From assembly GCF_035083965.1 (NCBI RefSeq), contig NC_089731.1:4193001-4257000 (forward strand): DNA of 64,000 nucleotides, in the 5' to 3' direction. Made by a program: the position numbers and the translations under genes. Shown in pieces: positions 23,760 to 62,700 of the stretch. Positions within the stretch are counted from its first letter, which is position 1. Every line of letters begins with the position of its first letter. This DNA comes from Branchiostoma lanceolatum. Lineage: Eukaryota; Chordata; Leptocardii; Amphioxiformes; Branchiostomatidae. The notes beneath the pieces are model-generated. The model made no database searches. It was not told where the DNA came from and saw only the letters and a list, made by a program, of their open reading frames with translations.

Positions 23760-24310
23760 CTTAAACACAACCACTCACATCTGCCCCTGGTACTGAACAC
23801 CATTCACTTGAACACATCTGTCCCAGGTGCTGAACACCATGGCCATCCACACCTATCTATCTGGTGCTGAACACCATCCACTCAAACACAGCTGTCCTTG
23901 GTGCTGAACACCATTCACATACAGCTAACACACCTGTCCCTGGTGCTGAACACCATCCACTTGAACACATCTGTCCCAGGTTCTGAACACCATGGCCATA
24001 CACACCTATCTCTCCGGTGCTGAACACCATCCACTCAAACACATCTGTCCCTGGTGCTCAACACCATCCACATACAGCTAATAGACCTGTCCCTGGTGCT
24101 GAACACCATCCACCCAAACACATCTGTCCTTGGCACTGAACACCATATACAAACACACCTGTCCTTGGTTCTGAACACCATCCACTCAAACACACATGTC
24201 CTTGGTGCTGAGCAGCATCCACACACAATGCCTTCCTTCCATCCACAAACGCACATGTCTCTGGTGCTTACCATCATTTGTTTTAAGCAAACATACCTGT
24301 CCCTTATCCT
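23760..24310 (+). repeat. Minisatellite with 'gtgctgaacaccatccac' core
   Basis: Ten or more irregular units of about 30-60 bp, each with a version of CTGTCCCTGGTGCTGAACACCAT. It lies between the TTC17-like and RBM42 3' ends. Unit spacing varies, and no spacer/repeat order as in CRISPR is present. Confidence 0.85.
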
Positions 24311-43962: not shown

Positions 43963-44590
43963 TCATTCCATTTCAAACGGTCGTGAGCTGTCGCCGAATG
44001 AGTCTTCAGCACCATGGGCAGGAATGCAGCTTGCATCATGGCAGTCAATTATTCGACTATTTTACAGAACGAAATGTGCTATATGCATCCTTGCAAAGTT
44101 TATAGCTTGTAAATACACAATGTACAATGTAGGTTCTCAAAAAGTTTAACAAGCAACTAGAAGTTGTTCTTTCTAATGATAATGGGCAATCTTAAACTTT
44201 AAACAGACAATATGTGAAGGCATAAACAGACAGGAAGGCAGGTTGCATCAGGGCAGTCAATTATTCAACTATGTTACAGAACTAAATAGGCAGCCTTGCA
44301 AAGTTCTAGTAAATACACAATGTACAATGTAGGTTCTCAAATAATTTAACAAGCAACTTGAAGTTGTTCTCTTCATAATGTCAGTGGTCAATCTTAAACA
44401 GACAACATGTGAAACAACTTAACATTTTCAAATTGATTCTAGAAGTATAAACTGACTGACCAGAAGGTGTCTACTATTGTGCTCTAATTGATCAAATCAA
44501 ACAGCTTATTCCTCCATGTCAAACGGTTGTGAATCATCGCTGAATGGGTCTTCAGCACCATGGACAGGAAGGCAGCTTGCATAATGGATA
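43963..44590 (-). repeat. Two extra tandem copies of the ZCWPW1 C-terminal coding tail
   Basis: Below the ZCWPW1 stop, two further copies of its terminal coding segment occur on the same strand. The nearer (ending TAA at 44506-44508) reads GAEDPFSDDSQPFDMEE. The farther (ending TGA at 43963-43965) reads GAEDSFGDSSRPFEME. The real end is GAEGQFSDNSQLFDMEE. Flanking 3'UTR-like sequence is also repeated (aattgatc and acaacatgtgaaaca motifs). They may be alternative terminal exons or relics of tandem duplication. Confidence 0.75.
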
Positions 44591-44777: not shown

Positions 44778-47700
44778 TTATTCTTCCATGTCAAACAGTT
44801 GGGAATTGTCGCTGAATTGGCCTTCAGCACCAAGGACAGGAAGGCAGCTTGCATCATGGCAGTCAAAATCCATCAGCGGGCTTCCTGGTACGTTGCTGTC
44901 TTCCAGGTTTTCCTCAAAGTCCATGGCAGGGCTGGAAGGAACACAGCTGTCCAATACAGCTGGAACATCTTCTGGCAGGTTCATCCCTGGACTTGAAGGG
45001 CAGACATTGTCATCAGTAGCTGGATCTTTCAGATCCATCCCTGGACTTGATGGACAGACACTGTCATCAGCAGTTGGACCTGCCATGTCCATTCCTGGAC
45101 TTGCTGGACAGACACTGTCATCAGTAACTGGATCTGGTATATCCATCCCTGGACTTGAAGGACAGACACCCTCAGCTGTGGCTGGATCTGGCAGGTCCAT
45201 TGAAGGACTGGTTGGGGCACTGAGAAAGTCATCAGCAACATCATCTGCATTGGACGCTTCAAGAACACTGGGTGGCATGTCATCACTCTTACTACCATGA
45301 GCTTTGAGATCTTTGTTTGTCTTGTCTTCAGCTTTCTTTGTTGTCTCAGAGGGATGCTTGTTGTCAGTGTTTGGTTGCTTGCTACAGCATTCTTCCTGTG
45401 AATCCATTTCCATGGTGAAGACTTCAATGTCAAAGGGGATTGGGGAAGGGGGCTTAGTTGGCATGTTGTCTGTTTTATCTTTGGAAACAGGAATAGCTGG
45501 TGTTGTCTTTTTTTGCTTTGGTGGCTTGAAGCTGGGCTTCTTTGGTTTGGGACCAGATGCTGATTGCTTGCCCTTTGTCTTGGGTTTTGTCTCATTTTCG
45601 CTGTTCATTGTAACCTCTTTATCATTGTCACTGATATTGTTCTTCTTCTGAGATGCCACAGGTTTAGATTTCTTCATCTTTGGCTTGAAAGCAGGAGCTT
45701 TCTTGGGTCCTCCTGCTTCTTTGGAGCCTTCCTTTTCTTTTGAGAAGATTTTGCCTTTCTTGCCATCTTCTTCTGACAAAGCAGTCTTCTTTTTCTTTTT
45801 TGGAGCTTCAATATCGTTTGATTTCTTCCCTTTTCTTTTGATGGCTGTTTTTGGTTCTTTAGGCATTTCCTTCTCTTCCTTAATGACAGGTGGTTGATGG
45901 GAAATCTTCATGACCTTGCCCGGGGAGTATTCAAACTCTTCATCACTGTTGTCATCTGCAGGAAAAAGTGAGAAAGTGTACAAGACGTTGTTTTCTTGAC
46001 AAACATCTCATATAGTACTCAGTAAATAATATTCTTATGTACATAAAACAGTGGACTACTACTACTACTACATGAAACTGACTGATGTAATTTACACTGT
46101 ATAAAGCTCCTTTTACCAGTTGGATACAGTCTTTGCCACTGTTAGATCTGCTTGGAGATTACAAGCTAAGACCTACCACTCTCTCTTTCTTCTTTCTTCT
46201 GCACTGAACTGAGGAAAGACTCTGCATTCCCCAACACCTTCTCTGCCTGTTCCATCAGGTCCTCCACACTCCCACTGTCTGACACGTCACCAGGTGGTGT
46301 GGGCTGGGCTTCTACCAGTGCTAGTGGGGAACTTTTCCTTGCTATTTTTGCAAGGGGTTCTGCAAGAAAAGATAAACAAAAAATGAAAGTTCTGCTTCAG
46401 TACCAGGGGGCCCAAAATCAACCTTGACCCTAGTCTTCCCAAGACCTACCCACATATTAAATGTCATCGTATTCCATCCAAAGGTTCTTGAGTTATGCTG
46501 ACTACAATATCCGGAAACAGAAACAAACAAACAAACAAACAGACAGACAGACACATACACAGACATACCATTTTCATGGAGATAAAAATCAATTATAGCA
46601 AATGGAAAGTACTGTAAATTAGAGCCATATTACGGAGTTCACTGTTGGAACATTGTTTGATTCCCACTAAGGTTCCATGTAATGTTGCCAATAGAATACA
46701 CCACAAAAGTTAGACGAGACATCTTAGGTAAGATTCCTTTCAGCTATGACATATCTAACTTCATCATTTGGTATCTAACTTTTAACTTTTTAGTTTTGGC
46801 ATTCAAGGCAATGACTATGTTGTGATTTGCAATTGCTTTTTCACTGCTTTCATAACAAAATGATCTGGGAAACAGTCAACAGTGCTGAATAGTACATAAT
46901 CTGTTAATTTTTCCTTCCCCACACTCGGGGGAAAATGGAAAGATATATTATAGACAGTAAAGATTGACGGAAAACTTCAAACCTTTGTCATCTTCATCTT
47001 CATCACAGCTGACTTCTGGTCTTCCCCAGTGTCCTTGGAACCGCTGGCCAAATCCAAAGGTTTGCAGTCTCTTCTACAGAAGACATAGTCAGGTACAATG
47101 TTAAAAGGGGAGCATTCAACAGACAATGCAAGGCACTGCATTATCTTAAAGGTGTGAAAATTGTATAAAAAAAGCTATTAGGGCAGCAAGGATCAAGAAG
47201 ACATGTCTGTATGTATGTATCATCACAGCATTGGGGAAACTAAACATTCAGCTTATTGGACATTGCATCATGAACCAGTAATTAGAGATTGGCTTTTGCC
47301 TTGGATACAGAATAGATTCAATTTGTTCTGTGTTTATGATTTTGAGCAATCTGACAGCGTATGTGCATTTTAAATCATTCATATACAAGTTTCTTTGTAC
47401 ATGTAATGTACTTAGAATGTTGTTATAGCTTGTTATGCTGTCCATGTCAAATTCCAATGTTGTCTTGATTTGTCAGCTGGGCTAGTTCTTTGTAATAGCA
47501 ACATGCTAGTTGGGCAGCCCCGGCAGTGTGTGCTGAACAGCCAAACCAATGAATAAAGTTTAAATGTGTGATTTCGATACCTTTATGGACAACACAACGG
47601 CCTGTCGTGCCATTGTCCACGCGCCCTGCACACGCTTCCGGTAGTTCTTGCCATCCACGACCAACGACCCCAGGTGATCAACGTCATTCTGTCGGCTAAA

Positions 47701-50700
47701 CGGGCGCACTTTTCCATCCGGGATCCAGGCGCGGGACACCGTCTTTCCGAAAAAGACGACATGGTAGCGTACCTGTTGGTAGCAATGTATCAAATTAGCA
47801 CTTCGGACCAAAAACAAATTATATAGGACATGTACATACAACTGATCTCGGTTAAAACTATAAAAGCAGTGGTCTGAGATTTGGGGGTGTGACTATAGGT
47901 CACAAACAAGATGATACAGTTTTCAGCGGATAACATTTTCAGCGAACTGATGTCTCACAAGTGTGTCTGTACTCCGTCCACACTGACCAGTGCCCGCAAA
48001 GTGCCCTTTAAGGGATTACTCTTACCACATCAATCTGTGTCCTTGGTTCTTGCCTTCTTGCCTGTTTTAGAGCAAATGTCTAAAAATCACTCCCTTATAA
48101 AACTGTGTGCACTCACAGAGGCATAAGTTTCATTTCTTTTCCTTCTTTTTATCACAATCCAATTTAAAAAAAATATCTATCTGCAAATGAATTAAACTCA
48201 TCTCCATAAAATCATCATGGCAATTAGCACATATACAAATGTAGGTCACAATGTTTTGAACTGTGTAAATTAATATATACATAAATGTAGAAACTCTGCA
48301 ATTGTTACACCAGGTCCTTAATCATTTTTGGATTGAATGTTTTGAATGTGACTAGTACCTCAGCAAAATTTTTATATGATAAGCCTTTTGGCTGCCAGGC
48401 CAGGAGGCATTGTGTTGTTGTTTCAGCACCTTGGAGGAAGCTAAAATGTACCAATATTGTGTGTGAAAGTTGAGGGCACTTTTTTACAAGAAAATTCAAT
48501 TTCACACTGTCTTTGTTTTGCCAGAAAAATACAGGCTAGCAAGACCATTAAACTGCATTCTGGAACAAACTCTGAAGCCTGGGGGGCACTTCCTCCATTG
48601 GGTAGAGAGAAATAATGAGACTAGGAGAGACCACCAGAGGAGAGAACTAATGAAACTTTTCAATCTCCGACAGTCGACCCAGATTGCTATTTTTAATCCC
48701 CTGAAGACGTCAGGATGTTTCGTAGAATGACTATTGGGTTCTTGCAAAGATTTATAATTCAACAGACTTCCAGGAAATTTGTCTGCTCAACAACCCTCCT
48801 GTCGAGGACTGAATCATGAACCCACCTGTCTTCCTTTCAGTATTCAATGTATCATTGACATATACACTGCACACAGTACATGTAGCCTACACAAGTTAAT
48901 TCTAGCTCCAGATTTACGTCAGTCTAGAAAGGGGAATCACACATTATACATACATGTAGACAATGATTTTGAAGCAGCGCCACATACTTAATGTGTTTTA
49001 GTTAGTTTGGCACACCGCGGGGTTGTGACGTATGTTTGTCCACCATCATGGCTCCGTAAGAGTTTGATGTTCTAATAAACGCCCAGCACCAGTGTTATGC
49101 ACCATACTGCCTGTCTAGAGTTGTCAGTCGTGTTATATTTAAGCAGATTGAAGCCACATATATAAAATAAAAAATTATAGATCTCCACTGATATATGCTC
49201 ATCTTTCAAACAATGGTGGTGGGAATCCTTTACCGTGCTCAGAGAATATTTCCTCTAATACGGGACCAAAAGCTTAACCTCCTTTGACCTCTGAAGAACA
49301 ATCTGATCTCTGCATGACTACTGCAGCACCTTCAAGTGATAAACGCCAGCAAGTCGGTCAGAGAGAACTAATGACACTTTTCAATCTCCATCAGTCGTCC
49401 CAGACTGGTATTTGAAGATGTCAGGACGTTCCATAGAATATGTCATTGAAGGGTTGGAAACGTTTAAAATTCAACAGACTTTCAAGAAATTTGTCTGCTG
49501 AATGACCTTCAGTCTCCTTGGCTGGACTGAATCACGTATGCACCCCTCTTTCTTTCAATATTCAATGTATCATTGCACACATGTAGCCTAAAAAATTTCT
49601 TCTAGCTTCAAAATAAAGTCAGTCTAGAAAGAGTCATCACACATATACTCACTGACAGGTAGATTTCGAAGCAGAATGCTAACAACATTAAAAGGCAAAA
49701 TACTTCTTTGATAGATCCCCCCTTTTGTTTTAAATAAGGGGGATCCATGTAGGGAGAAGCTAAAGTGATATGCGGAAGTTTTTTGTACCATGTCATATGG
49801 AAATACCAAGAAAATACATTGGTGTGGCCTAAGGCTACAATGTCCCAAATTCAAATTTGGCTATCAAAAGTACAACAGATCGGAATAGTGGCAGGGTTGG
49901 ACCAGTCCATTGGCCCGATTGCCCGGGGCAAGTGACCAGGCCAGTGTGATTTTTCAAAAGGTGGGTACAATTTTTTTTTTTTTCATGAAAAAACATAAGG
50001 ATTTCCTTGCTGCAAGTAAAAGAACATAGAAATAGTGGTCATTTAAAAATGTTGGGCTGGTGAAAAGTTGGTTCGGGCCAGTAGATTTTTTTACGTTGAA
50101 TCTTTAAAACCTTGTTCAACACTAGGTGGTGGTACTAGAATGGTGGTGCTCTGAGAGACAACCTGACCTTTGATTACTTCCGCAGTCCCTTCAAGTAAGT
50201 CAGGGATTTCAAGATTCAATTTTGAGATTCAATCGAGAACCACCATGTGGGCGAGAAGTGGGAACAATAACCTGTCTTGCCACAGGCACACAAGACATGT
50301 CATCTATGTCATCAGGATGCCCTGTCCTCTCATCCATAGGGAAACACACGTGCACAACGATGATTATTCAGGTAGCTCTGTTGAAAGAGATTCACCGTAT
50401 GGTATACAGATCAGTCGTCAAGATGCTGCCAAGCCAGGCAATGCTCTTCTTGCTTCTGGTGTCTCTTGTGGACAAAGCTGCTTCACAGTGCCCCAACAGC
50501 TGTCATCCCAACAATCCTAGACTTGTGCATGGTGTGGTGTTTGTCTGTCACTGTCCAGATGACCATGGGAAGGAGAATCCCTGCAGCTGGATTGGACATG
50601 GAGGGACTGTGCACAGCTTCGAGATATGTCTTGACGCCATACCCACTGGCTTCTACAAAGAAACTCGAGTAATTTACATCGAGCATCTCCGCTCCTCTAC

Positions 50701-53700
50701 GCTCGTAGAGCGGTCTTTCCCAAACATCTCAAGCCTTCAACATCTAAAGATCCAAATGTCTAACATTTCCACAATCCAGCCTGGGGCTTTCATTGGCCTA
50801 CCACTGTTAGAGAGGCTCTACCTTGATGACAACAGACTCTCCAGTTTGGGTAAGTTGAAAAGGGTTCTACAAAAGTTAATGCAGTTTTCTGTCCTCGAGC
50901 ATTATTGCCAATAGTGGTAAAAGGATTTTGTCTGATACTTATTAGGAAGACAACACTCTTACAACTGAGTCTGACAAAATTAATGTTTTTCACATGTCTC
51001 TAAGGAATAGCCAACATTAATTTCAAGGTTTGCTTGGTTAATCTTTTTTTCTGACCTAATTACACAAACCTTTTCTATACTGTTTCTGTTTTTTATGTTC
51101 TCAACATACTATGGTCATGATTTTTAGGTGTCAGATACTATGAGATAGCTTTTGGGCTTGGGAAGAAGTGGCATAGTACATGTTGGTTTGGTCCTCAATT
51201 GTACCTTTTTTCTAGAACTGCAGCCATGTTTTGGGGAGACTTTTGAAGATAGCTCTAGAAGGGATAACTGGTAATTTGGCATGCAGATAGACTAAGTGAA
51301 ATAAATTATCATTAGATGCTCATTATGTTAATTAGGACTTAATTTGCATGATGAATGAGGAAACTTTATAATTCCACCGTTACACGACAGGACTTTAATA
51401 TACGATCATACTCATCACATAATAAATAACTTTGGAGAGTAGAACATAAATTGATAATAGTCATCAAGGTGCAAAGTAGGACCTAATTTGCATTATGAAC
51501 ATTATGCATATATAATAAGTTTCCATAATGCTTACTATAAGAATTTTTTTAAATTTAAATAATACCGAGCCTTGATTCAGGCCAAGCCACAGACGAATCT
51601 GCAAGCTGAAATGTAAAACAAACAAAAAACTTGACTAATTTATTAGTACACAATGACACTCAAGCCAAGCCACAGACAAATCTGAAGGGCTGATATGTAG
51701 AATGGACAAAAAAAAAACCCTCCAGTAATTCAATGGTACAACAGTGATCGTCGATTCAGGCCAAGGCCAAGGCCCAGTCAAATCTGCAGGGTGAAATGTA
51801 GAATGAAAAAAAAAAGTTTTAGATTACTAATTTATAGGTACACAGCGAACCTTAATTCACGCCAAACTGCAGACAAATCAGGCAGGCTGAAATTTAGAAT
51901 GAAAAAAACTCTACTAGATCATCAGTACACAGTGAATCTAAATTCACGCCAAACCACAGACATATCAGGCAGGCTGACATATAAATTAGAGTGAAAAAAA
52001 AAAGACTAATTTTTTAGTACACAGTCTCAACTCAAGCCAAGCCACAGAAAAATATGCAGGGCTAAAATGTAAAAAAAATAATAATACTAGCAAATCAACT
52101 AAGAATAAGAATGCACCCCTTCTTTGAATATTTCGAACTGGATGAATTAAAAGTTATGGTATTTCTTCTCTTTTGCTTGGGTAATTTTGCTTAAATCAAA
52201 GACTTCTACATAATGTCCTTGACTATATTCATGATAATGCTCTGGTTTTCTATTGTGTCTCAGCAAGCTTGTGAATAACCTGCTATATGATAGTGTTTAC
52301 AAAGTAAAAAAAAATTCAAATTCGGGGCTGTAGCGGATGTACAATTTGTTCATAGAAGAGATGTTGTACGTGAAAAAAATATGCATAGTTTTGCATCCTT
52401 CCAAGAACTGACCTTGCTCTATTGCGTGGATAAGGGCATATGTGATTTTCCCACTGTCTTCTGTGAGATAATTGCTGCCGCAAAATGTATTGTTTACATT
52501 AACCTTCTCCCTGCTGCCTAGTGGATATTGGGTACCAAACGGCTACTTTAGAGTGCTAATATAACAGTTATGCAGTTTGTTGAAAAGGAACCCATTTTTT
52601 GGGTTCCGTTAATGGAGCAATAATAGCACCAGTTTCAGCACCAGGGACAGCAGACCATCTTTTGGATTTTTAAAAGTTTAAAAAGTGCATGTACTTTACT
52701 TTAATCGAGAAATGATGGTACATGTACATAGGTGTGGTAAATGATGAGGTGAAGTTGAACATCGTTTTGTCATGGTTTACGCAAATCAGGGTGCATAACA
52801 AGTGAGGAAATGACTGTTGGCAAGTCTAGTTGAACTTCTTTTTTGTTTACTCCCAGGACCTGATGCTTTTCTTGGGCTTGACAGATTAAAACAGTTGTTC
52901 CTAACCAGGAACATGATTTCAGCCATATCGAAGCACGCCTTCTGTGGCCTCCCTTTCCTCACCACACTGCAATTGTCCCAGAACCACCTGACTTCTCTGC
53001 CCATCGACGCACTTCTGCAGCCTAAAGCATTGATACTGGCCAATCTGACACAAAATGCCATCACTACCGTCTACAGCAATGTTCTGCTTCTCAAACAACA
53101 CAAGGGTTTGAAACTTGTGATGCAAGAAAACAAGATGAAATGCGACCGGAATCTTATGTGGTTCATCTGCAACCTACCGACCCTAGACCAGATTCACGAT
53201 CGATTCTTCCTGAAGTGTGCTTCTCCTGAGGATCTCTATGGAACTCTCCTCAGCAGTATGACCAGCAACCCGGTTGCCTGCCAGACCAGTATGGACAGCC
53301 CACGACAAACAAACAACAAATCATCCAAGCCAACTGCTACTGCAAATGGATTCAACGAAGTATCTACTGCTACTGCAAAGACTCAAGTAGTAGATCTTCA
53401 AACTGCCACCACACGTTTGTCCAACGAGACCAGTTTCACTGAGGACTACACAAATGAAATGATGTCAGTCTCTCATCATACCACTGTCACTAAGATGAAC
53501 TATATCATCATGCTTGGGGGAGTCCAGATCATCAAAGCAGATGGCAGTAGCATGCAAATTTTGAGCATTGCTGTTGTTGCGCCGATGCTTTTGTTGTTGG
53601 CACTAGCAGCTGCCTTCTTCATCTACAAAAGTTGTCATGGTACAGGTTTAGACCGTCATGGCATACCAATTGGATCAGATGACGAAGAATCAGCAGAAAA

Positions 53701-56700
53701 CCCCAAAGTTGAGCCATATGCAGTGATCTATGCTGACATGGCTGAACTACAAGAAGCCAACTCAACCACAGGGAGACAGCCCATCCCTACATGTGACCAG
53801 ACATCAGAAGACATCCAGCCATATGCAGTGAGCGAAGGCTCGAGACCACAGCTTCAGCCTCATGCAGTGACCTCCTGCAGTGACGATTCTAGGCAGAACA
53901 CAAGCTACAAAATAGAGCCGTACGCAACAGGCTACCCTGACCTCCCACAAGCTGCAGAAATCCACGCCAAGGTAGATCTTGCGCAACTGGAAAACAGCAC
54001 TGACCAACCGGCTCCAGACATCAACCAACCAGTCATCCACACTAAAGACTCTGACCAGTCACTGCCAAAGAATGCCCCCATACAGCCAAAATGTGAGGAC
54101 GAAGAAGCCAAAGACGGCAACCAACCAAGTGTCGGGACAACAAACCAGAGCCCACAGCTTCAGCCTCATCCAGTGACCTTCAGCCATGATGACCAACAGG
54201 AACCTGCCATCAAACAACCACTCACTCAATCACACACACAATCACTTACAGGCGATGTCGACCAACACCCAACAATTGAGAATGAGGAAGCAGAAAAAGG
54301 CAATCTGTCAACGAGAGATGGCAAGGGTCCTTACGGAATGGAAGACGAAAATGAGATTCCAAGCAAACATGGGATGCTGTACAAGAGTGGCTCACAGCCC
54401 AATGGTTTGGAAGAGCACGGCACATCTCATGTCCTGTACAACCAAGCTCATGGACAGCCTGAGAGTAAGGACAGCACATCTCATGTCCTGTACAACCCAG
54501 CTCACCAACAGCCTGAGAGTGAGGACAGCACACCTCATGTCCTGTACAACCCAGCTCATGGACAGCACAAGAGTGAGGACAGCACATCTCATGTCCTGTA
54601 CAACCCAGCTCATGGACAGCCTGAGAGTGAGGACAGCACATCTCATGTCCTGTACAACCCAGCTCATGGACAGCCTGAGAGTAAGGACAGCACATCTCAT
54701 GTCCTGTACAACCCAGCTCATGGACAGCCTGAGAGTGAGGACAGCACATCTCATGTACTGTACAACCCAGCTCATTGACAGCACGAGAGTAAGGACAGAA
54801 CATCTCATGTCCAATACAACCCAGCTCATGGACAGCCTGAGAGTGAGGACAGCACATCTCATGTACTGTACAACCCAGCTCATGGACAGCCCAAATGTCC
54901 AACAAGCAAACCCACAGTGCTGTATGGAGAAGACCTGATGGACACTGCACCTGCCCATGAGCAGCTGGCGACATTGTCAAGTCTGGGTTGTTAGGAGACA
55001 AATTTGTAAGGATTTTGAACAAATTGAAGATCTCTTAATATACAATCATATAAAGGTTTGGACTTGAGTCCCTTTCTACATGTGAATTAATGATACTTTT
55101 AATTTTAAGACTTAAAATTTGATATCATCAAAATGACTTTCATGATGCAACCTTTCCAAATATATCTGTTCAAAAAGTCAGTTTTAATTTTTAACCAGAG
55201 GGCATGCAGAGAATAAGTGCTCAATGAGTCATTTCTCACTATACAAAGCAGTTTCAACAGAAGTCAACTGCAAGATTCAAATTTCAAATGCGCAGAAAAC
55301 AAGCTAACTTCCAGCAGGAGAACAGGTTTTTTATATTGCCTGATGCAGAAAAACAACTACCACAAAACAACAGTTTTTTCTAGCTATATCTGCCTGAGGG
55401 GGTCAAGCCAGTGCTCTGAGATTAAACTGGCCACAAATATCCTGAACTGCCCAAGGCAGAATAAAATCAACCTCTCCCTAGACTTATTTCCTGACAATAT
55501 GTGGCACTTCTGATCAGCAACCCCACGTCACTTAATTACCAGTATTCATTAAAAAGGAAACATATAGAAACATGTATCTAGGCAATCAGGAAACTGTGCA
55601 AATTTTGTAATGACATGATGAAACATACAAACAGGCAATTGCATCAGACTCATTCATTGGAAAATACACATTTCATATTCAGCAGGCGACTGTATGCAGG
55701 TGAAGCACATTCAACTGTCAAAATGTTGCAAAGCAGAGCAGTGGTCTTTCTACTGCTGATGTCAAAACATCTACTGTTGGTCCCTGTAGCAGCTCAACAG
55801 TGCCCAGACCGCTGTCATGTTTGTTCAAATTTCTTATCATGTAGATGTCCAAATGAAAGTGGTACAGAGTCACCCTGCAGCTGGGTTGGACATGGAGGAA
55901 CCATATACAATCTTCCTGTGTGCCTTGCCTCCATACCAACTGGCTTCAACAAAGAACTTCTAGCACTCTACATCAAGCATCTCCGCTCTTCTACACTCCA
56001 CGAACAGTCTTTCGCAAGCTTTGGACTTTCACGGCTTTCTTCCCTGAATATTTACAGGTCAAACGTTTCCACGATACAGCCAGGGGCTTTCCAAGGCTTA
56101 CCACTGGTCAAAGCGCTCTACCTTGTCGACAATCGAATCTCCAGTATAGGTAAGTTGATATCAATTTCGACACTTATCACCAATGAATATTGAATTTGTA
56201 AAGCTGTATTCTTTCTTCCGAAAATAATTTCATCAGGTTGGTAGAATATAGGATATTGGTTGATTCTTTTTACACAACCAGGTAATCTCACCTGCTGACG
56301 TTTCACGGCTACTTATAGCGGTGAGAAGCAGTACTCCAGTCAGAAGCTCTGAAGAAGGTGTCTGACAGACACCGAAACGTCAGCAGGTGAGATTACCTGG
56401 TTGTGTAAAAAGAATCTCCTATATCCTGTATTCTTTCTATTAGTACAGATACCCAATAATTTCCGGGGACACATCAGGTTACCGGTAGTAAAGCATGGAG
56501 AGGATTACTGTTGGCCTTGTTTAGACTACATCATAGCATAATTGTACCTCCTGGAATAGAAATTTTATGCTTCAAGATATACATGTACCAACCCATAGCC
56601 TGGCACAGAAAGTGAGACAAGAAGTTGCTATGGAATTTCTTCATCAGAGTACTCAGTTTAATTGTTAATGGCTGGTTGTACCTTCATGATCTGCCTTTCC

Positions 56701-59700
56701 TTTGGACTTTGTTTCTCAGAGTAGAGTCAGATTCATTGTTTATGGCTGGTTGTACGAAGGAGGTTTTTGGTTGTACCTTCATAAACTGTTTTTGTTTTCC
56801 CTCAGGAACAGATGCTTTCCTTGGGCTTCAGAGACTGAGATTCTTGTGCCTTGACAAAAACATGATTTCTGTCGTACCGAAGCATGCATTTCGTGGCCTG
56901 CCTTTGCTTACCAGACTGTCCCTGTTCAGCAATGAACTGACTTCTTTGCCCCTTGAAGCGCTTCTTGAGCCTAAGGCATTGGCGAATGCAATCCTGACAG
57001 CAAATCACATAACCACTATCATGGATAGCGATATCTTGCGCTTGCAGCAAAACCAGCATTTACAGGTTTCAATAGAGGATAACAAGCTGCGATGTGACAC
57101 GCATCTAACATGCAACCTACCGCAGATGAACCAGATTTCTGATCGCGAGACACTTAAGTGTGCATCACCTGCCGACCTGTATGGACATCTCGTGAAGGAT
57201 GTCAGCTGCCAGCCTTATCATTACACGACCAGGCCACAAGACAACAGTCAGTATGACAGGACCATTCCCACTGAGGAATACGCAGAGTTGTCATCCACAA
57301 ATGACATGCCGGCCTCTCACTCTCAGCATACAACAGAGATTGACCATGTCATCATTCTACTTGGGGGAGACCCGATCAGCCACAAGAATAACAGCACCTA
57401 TATATTGGCCATGATCAGTGCTGTTGTTGTGCCCCTCCTCCTTGTGTGGGCAACAGTAGGTGCCCTCTACATCTACAAAAACAGTTGTGGCACATATCTA
57501 GACCATGATGGCCAACCTACTGGAACTGAAAATGAAACCACGTCCCCCGCAGAAAGCCAGCAAATGGAGCCGTATGCAGTGGTCTACCCTACATCTCCAG
57601 AAAACACGGCCCCCGCCAGAGAGGCCACCGCTGCTTCTGACCAGACCCCAGATACCATCCAGCCATATGCAGTGGCCTATGTTGATGTGACAGGGAAAGG
57701 GAAAAATGGCAAGCTTCCACCATATGCAACCACCCTTATTGATGATGATAATAACCAATCCCCAGACTGCAAGAATACCATTGAGCCATATGCAGGGACC
57801 AACGATGAAGACCCAGGACCACAGCTTCAGCCTCATGCAGTGACCCACGATGAAGACCCAGGACCACAGCTTCAGCCATATGCAGTGGCCTATGATGAAG
57901 ACCCAGGACCACAGCTACAGCCATACGCAGTGGCCTATGATGAAGACCCAGGACCACAGCTTCAACCTCATGCAGTGACCCACGATGAAGACTCAGGGCC
58001 ACAGCTACAGCCATATGCAGTGGCCTATGATGAAGACCCAGGACCACAGCTTCAGCCTCATGCAGTGACCCACGATGAAGACCCAGGACCACAGCTTCAG
58101 CCTCATGCAGTGACCCACGATGAAGACCCAGGACCACGTGCACAGCTTCAGCCATATGCAGTGGCCTATGATGAAGACCCAGGACCACAGCTACAGCCTC
58201 ATGCAGTGACCCACGATGAAGACCGAGGACCACAGCTTCAGCCATATGCAGTGGCCTATGATGAAGACCCAGGACCACAGCTACAGCCATATGCAGTGGC
58301 CTATGATGAAGACCCAGGACCACAGCTTCAGCCTCATGCAGTGACCCATGATAAAGACCCAGGACCACAGCTTCAGCCTCATGCAGTGACCCATGATAAA
58401 GACCCAGGACCACAGCTTCAGCCTCATGCAGTGACCCACGATGAAGACCCAGGACCACAGCTTCAGCCATATGCAGTGGCCTATGATGAAGACCCAGGAC
58501 CACAGCTTCAGCCATATGCAGTGACCCAAAATGAAGACCCAGGACCACAGCTTCAGCCATATGCAGTGGCCTATGATGAAGATCCAGGACCACAGCTACA
58601 GCCATATGCAGTGGCCTATGATGAAGATCCAGGACCACAGCTACAGCCTCATGCAGTGACCCACGATAAAGACCCAGGACCACAGCTTCAGCCTCATGCA
58701 GTGACCCACGATGAAGACCAGCTTCATCCTCACGCAGTGACCCACGATGAAGATCCAGAACCACAGCTTCAGCCATATGCAGTGACCCACGATGAAGAGC
58801 CAGGGTCATAGCTTCAGCCTCATGCAGTGACCCACGATGAAGACCCAGGGTCATAGCTTCAGCCTCATCCAGTGACCCATGATGAAGAGCCAGGGTCATA
58901 GCTTCAGCCTCATGCAGTGACCCACGATGAAGAGCCAGGGTCATAGCTTCAGCCTCATGCAGTGACCCACAATGAAGAGCCAGGGTCATAGCTTCAGCCT
59001 CATGCAGTGACCCATGATGAAGACCCAGGACCACAGCTTCAGCCTTACGCAGTGACCTGCATTAATCATCAAGAGCAAGATGATAACTACTAGATCCAGC
59101 CATATGCATACCGGACACCTGTTCTAAACTGCCTCAATTCTACAGACTGAGGTACATCCAGTAGTACATGTACCATCATTTGCAGGTGACATTTGAACTG
59201 TACAAAAACGTATAGCTCACTGACTTCATTTCAATCTTTGGACTTGAAATTAAGTCAGTATGCCAAAGGTTGCTTACAGGTCTCTGCTTGCTATCTGTCT
59301 CGTAGTATTCTTGGTCATCTGGGTCCTCTTCCACCATCCCTGGCCACCTGTTGGGCAACAGGACATGTAATTCTTAGCGATTTGTACTGTACTTTAATAA
59401 CATATATTCCCTAGGTAACAATGTTTCCCTGAGTTCAAAATACTAAATAATATCTACATAAAATGTACCAAAAATCAATAATTCACTTCTAAAGAATAAC
59501 TGTAACAGTTACACTAAAGACTCTATCAAAACATACCAGCTTACCAAGTTGATCCTGAATCAAATAACTTACAGCGTTTGGAAAACATTCCAACAGGACT
59601 CTATAGGCATAATAATTGAAATCTTCTAAATTGATACAAACTATAAAATCTAAAACTTGAATTTAAGTTCAGAATAGTTTGAAGTACTTGTAGATACCAT

Positions 59701-62700
59701 GGGTATCCAGGCATCTTGGCCCAAACCAAAGACCCCTCCACATAACATGTGTCCACAAACTCCAGCTTACTCCAGTCAGCTTCTAGCTTTTCACAACTGT
59801 TGTGCTCTTCATCTAAGGACACAAAAATGCAGACATTTTGTTATGGCTCTATCATAAAACTCGTGGACAACTGCAAAAAGGCAGTAAGTATGAAGCAGAA
59901 GACCACTGTGAGAAAAGTCATCAGGCTTACGTGATGAGGAAAAAAATGATACACAGACATTTGATATCAGACATACTTAGTACCTAGTGATCTTCAAATA
60001 TTAGTGATGAAGGAAAAAATGATAAATTATCAGTAGGGACTTATATCACAGATATTTGATATCAGACATACATGTACTTATATACCTACTGATCAAATAT
60101 TAGTTGATGGTGACAAACCTTTATCAGCCTACATGTTACATTGATTCTGCAGCCCATGAACCTAGTTTAAGTGGAAGTCTGGTGGTAAAAAATTAGCTCT
60201 GAATTACTGAAGGTATGAACAAGGTAGCTTCATGGTAAATTGTGAGAATCTGAGCTGAACTAAGCAGCAAGGCTTGTCAATGTTACACTGGACAGGGTGC
60301 TTACTTGTGCTAAGATCTAAACTCATCAGCTCACAGATTAACTTTGCAGTATCATCCAGTAGTAAAATAGAAAGTGCCTCAGTAAAAGACTTTGTGCTGT
60401 CCTGATAATGGTACACTTTTATAATGATACTAAGGTTAATCCGACTAATGGCTTATGTAGTGCTATTATTAAGTAACCAAAGTGACTTTAATTTGTAAGA
60501 ACACTAAATATTAACGGACATGTCACATTCATTTTGGGAAACAGGAAGGCACAAATTTATCTTTGGGCCTAAAAATGTTACGTCAGCCTTTAAGTTGGTA
60601 CTAATTCTTCAGCTTGACTTAAAGTTTGTAATTATTATATGTTTTCTATCGAGTAGCCATAAGACACCCAGCAAAAAATACAAAGGACTGGTATATAGAC
60701 ATTGCGTAGTCTCAAGTTTGAAACTCTGGACTGAGGTTAGCTTAAGGGGCTGACCTGTGTTCATAGAACATGTCCACTTGTCAGGCACAGTGGCAGGATC
60801 TGTCACATCGGCCAGGTAGCGCCACTTGTCACACTTGTCTGCCGTGCACTGCACCCAGGTCCCCTGTTCCTCAATCTCACGGGTCAGGAAACGGTTCCTC
60901 CTGGTAAAGTAGACAGACATTTGTGAAGTGTGTAGGTTCTATCAGTAACATCTAATTTGACACCATGACACTGACAAAAATTCAGTAAGGGTTAATGTGT
61001 TGGAACATTTCAAACTTTTCAAAATTATAATTCATAGGTTGCTATAGTAGATACTGAATAGATGAGTAAACATCATAGATTGAATTTGACCAAATTATGT
61101 AAAAGAAAAATGAAGAAAAAAAACGATGATGGAAGAAACCCCAGTGTTAGAATTGTAACTCAGCTTGCCTTCAGGTTAAGTCAGTTACTGACGAAAGACA
61201 GCGGATGCTGTCAGAAATGACCATTTCCAGATCTTTAAGATCCAGTTGCTTGTCAAGTGAGTACCTGTTGCCTAAAAATGTGTTAGCTTGAAGATACTGT
61301 TGGATAGAGACAAAAATAACAAGGAATGATAGACTAACTTTGACATTCTTTTCTTCTTGGCCTGTTTCTTCGGTTTCGGGGTAGAGGGGATGGTAGGGGA
61401 TGATGGCTTAGTCTCATCTGTAAATTCATAGATGCTCGTCTTGTCTGGATATGCTGGAAATGTAGAAAAAAAGCATAAACATCTTATTCATTGTTTTCAT
61501 CAATAATTGCTGTTTCATATAATGCTTCGCTATAGATGTACCTTTCTGAACATGAATATCAAAAACAACTCTATCACTGTGACAATTATTATGTCAAGGA
61601 TTACAATTATGAGTGTAATTTTGATCTGTTATTGTGAATTAGTCGTAGAAGCATTTGAAATGCTGGACTTGTAAATTAAGAACTATCCCGAGGGCTTCAA
61701 ATACTTTTGCCTGCAGTATACACCTAACTGGTGCAAGTAAGTTTGAATATTACTTAAACCAGATGAATTTTACTTGCCCCACTCATACTGGAAACATTTC
61801 AATTCTTCTTTTTTTTTCATCTCAGTATTTGGTTACCATCAGTAAAACAAACATTGATTCTAAGCCTACAATTACATTGTATTACTCAGTATGGACCAGT
61901 GGAGGTTGACATCATAAATACAATGTACCTGTACCGCACTTATTAACCTGTATACGCAGGTGGTATTTTGAGACCTGATCATATACTAATATTTCAATTA
62001 TGACTGTTTCTTATACATATATAAACCTATAGAATGATGCACAACTGTACTGAAAGTGAGGATCAGAAAATATTGTTATATGTATCTAAATTATCTTAAG
62101 TTTATCATTTCAGTCATAGATTCCCTTTTCTGAACATGCTGCAAAGGAAGAAAAAAATTTAATGATGATTATTGAAATCTGTACGATAATGAATTTTGAC
62201 TCGTATGTACATTTAAGCACACTTCATGGCAAATGAAATTGTAAGAAAATTACTCATGGGAGAAAAACAATATAAAAGACACGCCCCCTCCAGGGATCTC
62301 CCCAGAAATATGTAGCAGGATGGGGGGAGGGTGACGGGCACAGGATACGTGTTGCGAGGGGGGGAGGTCTGGAGGAGGCGCACAACTCTCAAAAGGAGAG
62401 CGGATGTTGCCTTTTGCCTTTTTCAGACATAATGGAAGTTATTTTCTGCAACTTCAGCTTTACACCTGAAATTTCTAGTTCTGAGCAAAATTGCAGGCTT
62501 TGCTGGGTAAAAATTGGAAAAAATATCCTAACTTTGAAAATCAACAAGATGGAGCTGGGATTAGAACAGGATGGAGGAGCGCCACTGTACCATTCTTTAG
62601 GGAGATCCCTGCCCTCCACACGTGTACATCAGTGCACAGGGCTTTAATTAAAAAGGAAATTGACAAGGATTTTATGAATAATATACAAAATTTTGCAAAT

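What the first reader, a model, noticed from the sequence alone, without database searches (positions are those of the whole stretch)
50423..59093. Pair of uncharacterised LRR receptors nested antisense in the ZCWPW1 PWWP intron
Two tandem plus-strand receptor genes lie entirely within one 11.5 kb intron of the minus-strand ZCWPW1 gene. Both share exon 1 length (427 nt), intron phase and domain order, so one arose by tandem duplication. LRR receptors with Tyr-rich tails suggest a surface recognition and signalling pair. Nesting within a meiotic gene could couple or restrict their expression.
Basis: partly seen in the sequence, partly recalled or inferred. Interest (0 to 1): 0.85.

Follow-up and report, generated by a model that had tools for sequence, protein, structure and literature searches.

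The report
Nested LRR receptors with repeat-built tails
Two related cell-surface receptor genes, probably from a lancelet, sit back to front inside one intron of a meiosis gene, and their inner tails are built from short DNA repeats that carry tyrosine motifs; the nesting is ordinary, the repeat-built tails are the interesting part.

Summary
The nested pair is real. Host intron 47773-59277 (11,505 nt) splits the PWWP domain of a minus-strand ZCWPW1 gene; splicing raises the PWWP score to 70 bits from 15.5 and 23.2 for the pieces. Inside lie two plus-strand paralogues, A (782 aa) and B (810 aa): LRRs, weak LRRCT, one TM helix, long tail. They are 50% identical with dS 0.86, an old duplication.

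Corrections: B ends at 58811; reaching 59093 means passing five in-frame TAGs. A also stops inside a repeat (54776). Equal exon-1 length comes from compensating indels.

The unusual part is the tails. A carries a 54-nt array, B a 45-nt array mixing double-Tyr and double-His units. Signs that B's array is held by selection are weak: a synonymous excess in selected units (9 of 13, P 0.002) vanishes when all 22 units are counted strictly (5 of 14, P 0.33).

Best reading: LRR receptors signalling through ITIM-like phosphotyrosines, as amphioxus BbLcLRR does, with motif number set by a coding minisatellite. Opposite-strand nested LRR genes are a known pattern; nothing found shows regulatory coupling to ZCWPW1. 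No expression or second-species data were available.

The parts
47773..59277 (-). Host intron of ZCWPW1 (11,505 nt) holding both receptor genes on the opposite strand
   Evidence: splice borders; spliced PWWP 70 bits
59278..59347 (-). ZCWPW1 PWWP exon b
59698..59812 (-). ZCWPW1 PWWP exon a
47581..47772 (-). ZCWPW1 PWWP exon c
60609..60938 (-). ORF with the ZCWPW1 CW zinc finger (exon borders not set)
   Evidence: PF07496 E 3.7e-12; 2e61 E 2.5e-8
44778..45955 (-). Probable last coding exon of ZCWPW1, with its own in-frame 54-nt array at 44971-45200
50423..50849 (+). Receptor A exon 1: signal peptide (by eye), Cys-rich N cap, first LRRs
52857..54778 (+). Receptor A exon 2: LRRs, LRRCT-like cap, stalk, TM (about aa 380-398), tail; TGA at 54776
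54413..54891 (+). 54-nt array in A's tail (HVLYNPAHGQPESEDSTS); the stop lies in its seventh unit
54779..54994 (+). Open frame of 71 codons after A's stop: rest of the array and a unique C end, untranslated unless the stop is bypassed
55723..56149 (+). Receptor B exon 1: signal peptide, Cys-rich N cap, first LRRs
56806..58811 (+). Receptor B exon 2: LRRs, LRRCT-like cap, stalk, TM (about aa 342-360), tail; TAG at 58809
57790..59057 (+). 45-nt array (28.2 copies) in B's tail: PYAVAYDEDPGPQLQ (Y units) and PHAVTHDEDPGPQLQ (H units)
58773..58997 (+). Five consecutive array units carrying the same in-frame TAG (amplified stop unit)
52635..52650 (+). RE1/NRSE-like (REST) site in intron 1 of receptor A; consensus recalled, tested post hoc

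Best explanation
A and B are paralogous type I membrane receptors. A short LRR solenoid outside the cell binds a ligand; a disordered tail inside carries repeated tyrosine motifs (EPYAV[VI]Y near the membrane, then VAYDEDP in B and VLYNPA in A) that a Src/Lck-type kinase phosphorylates so that SH2 proteins (SHIP, SHP or adaptors) dock, probably to dampen or tune signalling as in amphioxus BbLcLRR. In B the number of docking sites is set by a coding minisatellite that mixes double-Tyr units with double-His units. Stop mutations inside the arrays trimmed both tails, and in B the stop-bearing unit was itself copied. The genes lie in the ZCWPW1 intron because one copy landed there and then duplicated; the host is only the site. 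Shown: gene structure, paralogy, motifs, arrays, stops. Suggested but weak: selection on B's array. Inferred: membrane orientation, phosphorylation, SH2 docking, immune role, passive nesting.
For: LRR_8 in 4 of 4 receptor exons; a strong TM-like peak in each protein; LRR ectodomain relatives in the PDB (197 sequences for A's exon 2, best 60 seen), two of them aligning through most of the exon-2 ectodomain: LRRC4C (residues 7-142, E 1.8e-13) and LRRC15 (1-129, E 2.2e-13). Three pre-array PYA motifs align between A and B (EPYAV[IV]Y, IQPYAV, IEPYA) in a tail that is 42% identical. BbLcLRR has Lck sites DDYATV, HDYSEV and HDYDDP and associates with SHIP1 and, less, SHP1/2 in Jurkat cells (PMC8211107); EPYAVV/EPYAVI and VAYDEDP resemble the first and third. 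B has 9 VAYDEDP motifs, and the 9 standard Y units are identical in protein, differing only at silent bases. In 18 chosen units before the stop, 9 of 13 distinct changes are synonymous in the sense frame (P 0.002); the other five frames give P 0.75-0.94 in four and 0.027 in one antisense frame. CDS omega A versus B 0.50.
Against: The selection test is fragile. The 18 units are 18 of the 22 before the stop unit; the four left out carry replacements. Adding these gives 9 S to 9 N (P 0.034); counting all 22 with class-marker sites excluded gives 5 S to 9 N (P 0.33); counting a position once in the 18 gives 6 of 10 (P 0.030). Units copy one another and are not independent. A's array shows no synonymous excess. 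A strict ITIM occurs 0 times in A and once in B. BbLcLRR has a WSC domain; none matched here. Tail similarity between A and B may partly be DNA exchange: 30 of 30 exact matches of 16 nt or more between the loci lie at A 53812-54178. An RE1-like site in A's intron points rather to neural control. No expression data.
Confidence: 0.45

Rival explanations
1. Neural LRR adhesion receptors: A (and perhaps B) is a nerve-cell surface protein held off elsewhere by a REST-type repressor at the RE1-like site in A's intron, and the tail recruits scaffold proteins.
For: RE1-like consensus matched exactly at 52635 in A's intron; outside the miR-2060 array the window has 3 matches, against a mean of 0.01 for 500 position-shuffled consensuses, of which 0 reached 3 and 1 reached 2. 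PDB relatives include the neural proteins LRRC4C, LINGO1 and Nogo receptor and LRRTM2. LRRTM genes are neural, opposite-strand nested LRR genes (PMC3933685).
Against: The consensus is recalled and was tested after the sequence had been seen; the full 21-nt form with up to 3 mismatches has no match; two of the three matches lie in, or in a copy of, the end of a ZCWPW1 exon. Whether amphioxus has REST was not established in the passages read. The top PDB hits are not neural (acid labile subunit, LGR4).
Confidence: 0.25
2. One or both tails are decaying: the stops in both arrays mean that the genes are becoming pseudogenes, or are broken alleles of this one haplotype.
For: In-frame stops inside both arrays with open frames and unique C ends beyond them; no robust selection signal in either array; omega 0.80 in 53 codons of TM and juxtamembrane part.
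Against: Ectodomain frames are intact with omega 0.45; splice sites are intact; the 9 standard Y units of B are identical in protein. Both stops spare the ectodomain, the TM and most of the tail.
Confidence: 0.18
3. Nesting is functional: host and receptor transcription interfere, or B's 3' end runs antisense through ZCWPW1 exons and regulates it.
For: B's stop lies 467 nt from the ZCWPW1 exon at 59278, and the first AATAAA or ATTAAA on the plus strand after that stop is at 62647, so a transcript using a canonical signal would be antisense to the PWWP-b, PWWP-a and CW exons.
Against: Variant hexamers exist nearer (AATGAA 58971, CATAAA 59457). Opposite-strand nesting is common (PMC3933685).
Confidence: 0.08

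Closest known systems
BbLcLRR, Lck-associated inhibitory LRR receptor of Branchiostoma belcheri (PMC8211107; abstract, passages, sections 24 and 28 read)
   Same: LRR ectodomain, one TM, tail with Yxx[VI]-like and YDDP-like tyrosine motifs
LRRTM genes nested in alpha-catenin introns (PMC3933685; passages read)
   Same: LRR membrane receptor on the opposite strand inside an intron of an unrelated host gene
   Different: Ten LRRs and a PDZ-binding tail; different host; the paper found no LRRTM homologue in the lancelet
Minisatellite-like arrays ('mirages') in amphioxus Adh3 and globin genes (PMC3087553; passages, including part of the abstract, read)
   Same: Minisatellite-like arrays within amphioxus genes, with unit number differing between haplotypes and, at Adh3, reported somatic instability
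   Different: Those span exon-intron borders; these lie inside one exon, in units of whole codons
FrLRR of B. belcheri (PMC10199209; passages read)
   Same: Amphioxus LRR surface protein, co-precipitates with the SH2 adaptor Grb2
   Different: GPI-anchored, no cytoplasmic tail, carries a folate-receptor domain

Membership tests
ZCWPW1 (host) | CW zinc finger plus PWWP domain | tested here: met
   PF07496 E 3.7e-12, 2e61 best of 12 PDB sequences, spliced PWWP E 2.5e-19
Extracellular LRR receptor | LRR repeats in the ectodomain | tested here: met
   LRR_8 above cutoff in 4 of 4 receptor exons
Extracellular LRR receptor | LRRNT and LRRCT caps | tested here: inconclusive
   LRRCT 13.8 and 14.1 bits, below the cutoff of 20; N cap no match in 2 of 2; isolated caps of A gave no LRR relative in the PDB
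Extracellular LRR receptor | One TM helix after the ectodomain | tested here: met
   Hydropathy only: peaks 2.79 (A) and 2.55 (B)
Extracellular LRR receptor | Signal peptide | tested here: inconclusive
   Hydropathy peak 2.12 in B; A's N-terminal peak stayed under the 1.6 limit of the scan, though it looks like a signal peptide by eye
ITIM receptor | [SIVL]xYxx[ILV] in the tail | tested here: not met
   0 in A, 1 in B (VAYVDV); relaxed Yxx[ILV] 2 in each
BbLcLRR-type receptor | Tyrosine motifs phosphorylated by Lck and binding SHIP/SHP | not testable with these tools
   needs a bench test
BbLcLRR-type receptor | WSC domain | tested here: not met
   no WSC match at E up to 1 in 4 of 4 receptor exons
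Toll-like receptor | TIR domain | tested here: not met
   no TIR match at E up to 1 in 4 of 4 receptor exons
Functional nested gene pair | Both genes transcribed | not testable with these tools
   no RNA data held

The most novel reading that the evidence does not exclude
The tails are mutable signalling dials: minisatellite turnover in coding sequence adds, removes or swaps double-Tyr and double-His units, and even copies a stop-bearing unit, so that individuals (or cells, given the somatic instability reported for amphioxus Adh3) carry receptors with different numbers of phosphotyrosine docking sites. That would be a diversity mechanism acting on receptor output rather than on ligand binding.
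Probability: 0.12. Interest if true: 0.75.

Novelty: new variant of a known kind. Interest (0 to 1): 0.4.

Why it matters
Lancelets lack vertebrate-style antigen receptors (recalled), so how their LRR receptors vary and signal is an open question. Paralogues that have each expanded a different tyrosine-bearing repeat give a testable case of variation in signalling strength: genotype array length and measure SH2 binding. The nesting itself is ordinary.

Tried and rejected
Rejected: equal exon-1 length as proof of duplication (compensating indels). Not favoured: a coding antisense ORF over B's array (57736-59061, minus); the lowest P is in the sense frame (0.002), though one antisense frame gives 0.027 and the sense result is itself fragile. 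Rejected: the Pfam LIG3_BRCT match in B, with 0 stretches passing on their own and lying on repeat sequence. Rejected: a third receptor copy in the window: tblastn of A and B outside 49.5-59.5 kb gave 10 rows, lowest E 0.44. Without result: order of Y and H units (13 runs in 23 units, P about 0.5); NCBIfam, one chance-level match; isolated cap pieces of A in the PDB. Print searches, open-access library only: 0 papers hold ZCWPW1 with amphioxus or with Branchiostoma; of the 8 papers with 'nested genes', intron and Branchiostoma I read passages of PMC3933685 only, the others in listing. The lancelet terms searched do not occur in PMC7494361 and PMC8892340. Hits and 50 other than PMC3933685, PMC8211107 and PMC10199209 were seen in listing only.
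Full report
What is there. The minus-strand host is ZCWPW1: a CW finger at 60.6-60.9 kb whose best solved relative is human ZCWPW1, and a PWWP domain cut over three exons, 59812-59698, 59347-59278 and 47772-47581. Two of the ORFs that hold the pieces score 15.5 and 23.2 bits and the ORF with the middle exon has no match; the three exons joined score 70 bits over profile positions 1-89 of 93. The intron 47773-59277 is therefore real and 11,505 nt long. I could not join the 47581 exon to the 46359-46177 exon in frame, so a host exon or border is missing from my model.

The nested genes. A runs 50423-50849 and 52857-54778 (782 aa), B 55723-56149 and 56806-58811 (810 aa); both donors read GTAAGTTGA, the acceptors end CCCAG and CTCAG, and the introns are phase 1. 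LRR_8 matches 4 of 4 exons; by eye there are about six LRRs. The C cap has LRRCT-like cysteines but only sub-threshold Pfam matches (13.8 and 14.1 bits); the N cap, with six or seven cysteines, matches no family. A hydrophobic stretch near residue 380 (A) or 342 (B) separates a tail of about 380 (A) or 450 (B) residues with 15 and 29 tyrosines; the B count includes two at the membrane border. Comparing the first 520 residues of each, over 474 aligned codons, A and B are 50% identical with dS 0.86 and dN/dS 0.50; the ectodomain gives 57.5% and 0.45, the stalk 28%. The duplication is old and the ectodomains are constrained.

Corrections to the finding. The stated end, 59093, is the end of a frame that passes five TAG codons; B's protein ends at 58811. 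A's protein ends at a TGA within its array, with the frame then open for 71 codons. Equal exon-1 length is a coincidence of indels (+4, -6, +2 codons).

The tails. TRF finds a 54-nt array of 8.9 copies in A, a 45-nt array of 28.2 copies in B, and a 54-nt array of 4.3 copies in the last exon of ZCWPW1: three arrays in coding frames within about 14 kb, although the last part of A's and of B's lies beyond a stop. Of B's 29 units, 25 of 45 nt were classified: 9 double-Tyr (PYAVAYDEDPGPQLQ), 14 double-His (PHAVTHDEDPGPQLQ), 2 mixed; left out were the first, the last, one of 51 nt and one of 36 nt. The class consensuses differ at six bases, three of them changing residues. A HAVT motif also occurs singly in A, and 30 of 30 exact A-B matches of 16 nt or more (longest 29) lie in the tail, which suggests DNA exchange or very strong constraint there; I cannot tell which.

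Selection on the array: weak. In 18 units before the stop there are 13 distinct changes within classes; 9 are synonymous in the sense frame against an expected 27% (P 0.002), while the other five frames give P from 0.027 to 0.94. The standard Y units have 4 synonymous and 0 amino-acid changes (P 0.006). But those 18 are 18 of the 22 units before the stop unit, and the four left out carry five replacements: adding them gives 9 S to 9 N (P 0.034), and counting all 22 units strictly, with sites that mark the two classes excluded, gives 5 S to 9 N (P 0.33). Counting each position once in the 18 gives 6 of 10 (P 0.030). From the stop on, the changes look neutral on either count: 2 S, 4 N, 1 stop in five units or 1 S, 4 N, 1 stop in six. 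With so few changes, no contrast between the parts before and after the stop can be claimed. A's array shows no synonymous excess.

Mechanism. BbLcLRR, cloned from B. belcheri, is an LRR receptor whose major Lck sites in Jurkat cells are DDYATV, HDYSEV and HDYDDP; it associates with SHIP1 and, less, with SHP1/2 and inhibits T-cell signalling there (PMC8211107; abstract, passages, sections 24 and 28 read). The motifs EPYAV[VI]Y and VAYDEDP here resemble two of these. This is analogy: strict ITIMs are nearly absent, no WSC domain matched, and I had no BbLcLRR sequence to align. A neural role is the main rival, because of an RE1-like site in A's intron, found post hoc.

Nesting. LRR genes on the opposite strand inside introns are a recognised pattern (PMC3933685, passages). 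Nothing found here links receptor and host expression, except that the first canonical poly(A) signal after B's stop is at 62647, so B might run antisense through host exons.

Verdict. Real and correctly spotted; nesting ordinary; repeat-built tails that mix Tyr and His units and carry array-borne stops are a new variant worth a population survey. Interest 0.4.

Noticed in passing
window 23769-24231, minus strand: A tandem array is a cluster of miR-2060-like hairpins: one Rfam match above the gathering score and four more with E 2e-9 to 7e-6. Five mature-like sequences differ from bbe-miR-2060c-3p (PMC5650284, one passage read) by 2-3 bases.
   Followed up: partly
window 44823-44840 (ZCWPW1 last exon) and 44551-44568: ZCWPW1 mRNA is complementary to miR-2060c-3p over 18 contiguous nt (-35.7 kcal/mol, best of 12,663 overlapping stretches scanned in the window outside the array); a weaker site (-31.5) lies in a copy of the end of the last exon (89% over 83 nt), another (-29.1) near 52650 on the minus strand. 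Possible target site about 20 kb from the miRNA cluster on the same strand.
   Followed up: partly
window 23818-24174 minus, 44552, 44824 and 52635 plus: Nine exact matches to a 16-nt RE1/NRSE (REST) consensus (recalled, chosen after seeing the sequence), six of them inside the miR-2060 array; 0 expected from 100 shuffles and 0 in 60 Markov simulations. miR-2060 itself looks RE1-like. The full 21-nt form with up to 3 mismatches gave no match.
   Followed up: partly
window 56262-56416: Fold-back element in B's intron: 43-nt perfectly complementary arms, 69 nt apart, fold z-score -13.7 for 56255-56425; the loop holds a stretch that resembles a hammerhead core (recalled), with no hammerhead match in Rfam.
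   Followed up: partly
window 44971-45200, minus strand: The last exon of ZCWPW1 carries its own in-frame 54-nt array (4.3 copies), so host and both guests all have coding minisatellites.
   Followed up: no
window 51560-52080: A's intron holds several imperfect copies of an attcangccaagccacagac-like unit, seen by eye.
   Followed up: no
window 1-28 kb: Other genes glimpsed: RRM matches at 3.8-4.1 kb and 27 kb, a sub-threshold RRM match at 6.1-6.4 kb, a sub-threshold OST48 N-terminal match at 16.5 kb and TPR repeats at 21.6 kb.
   Followed up: no
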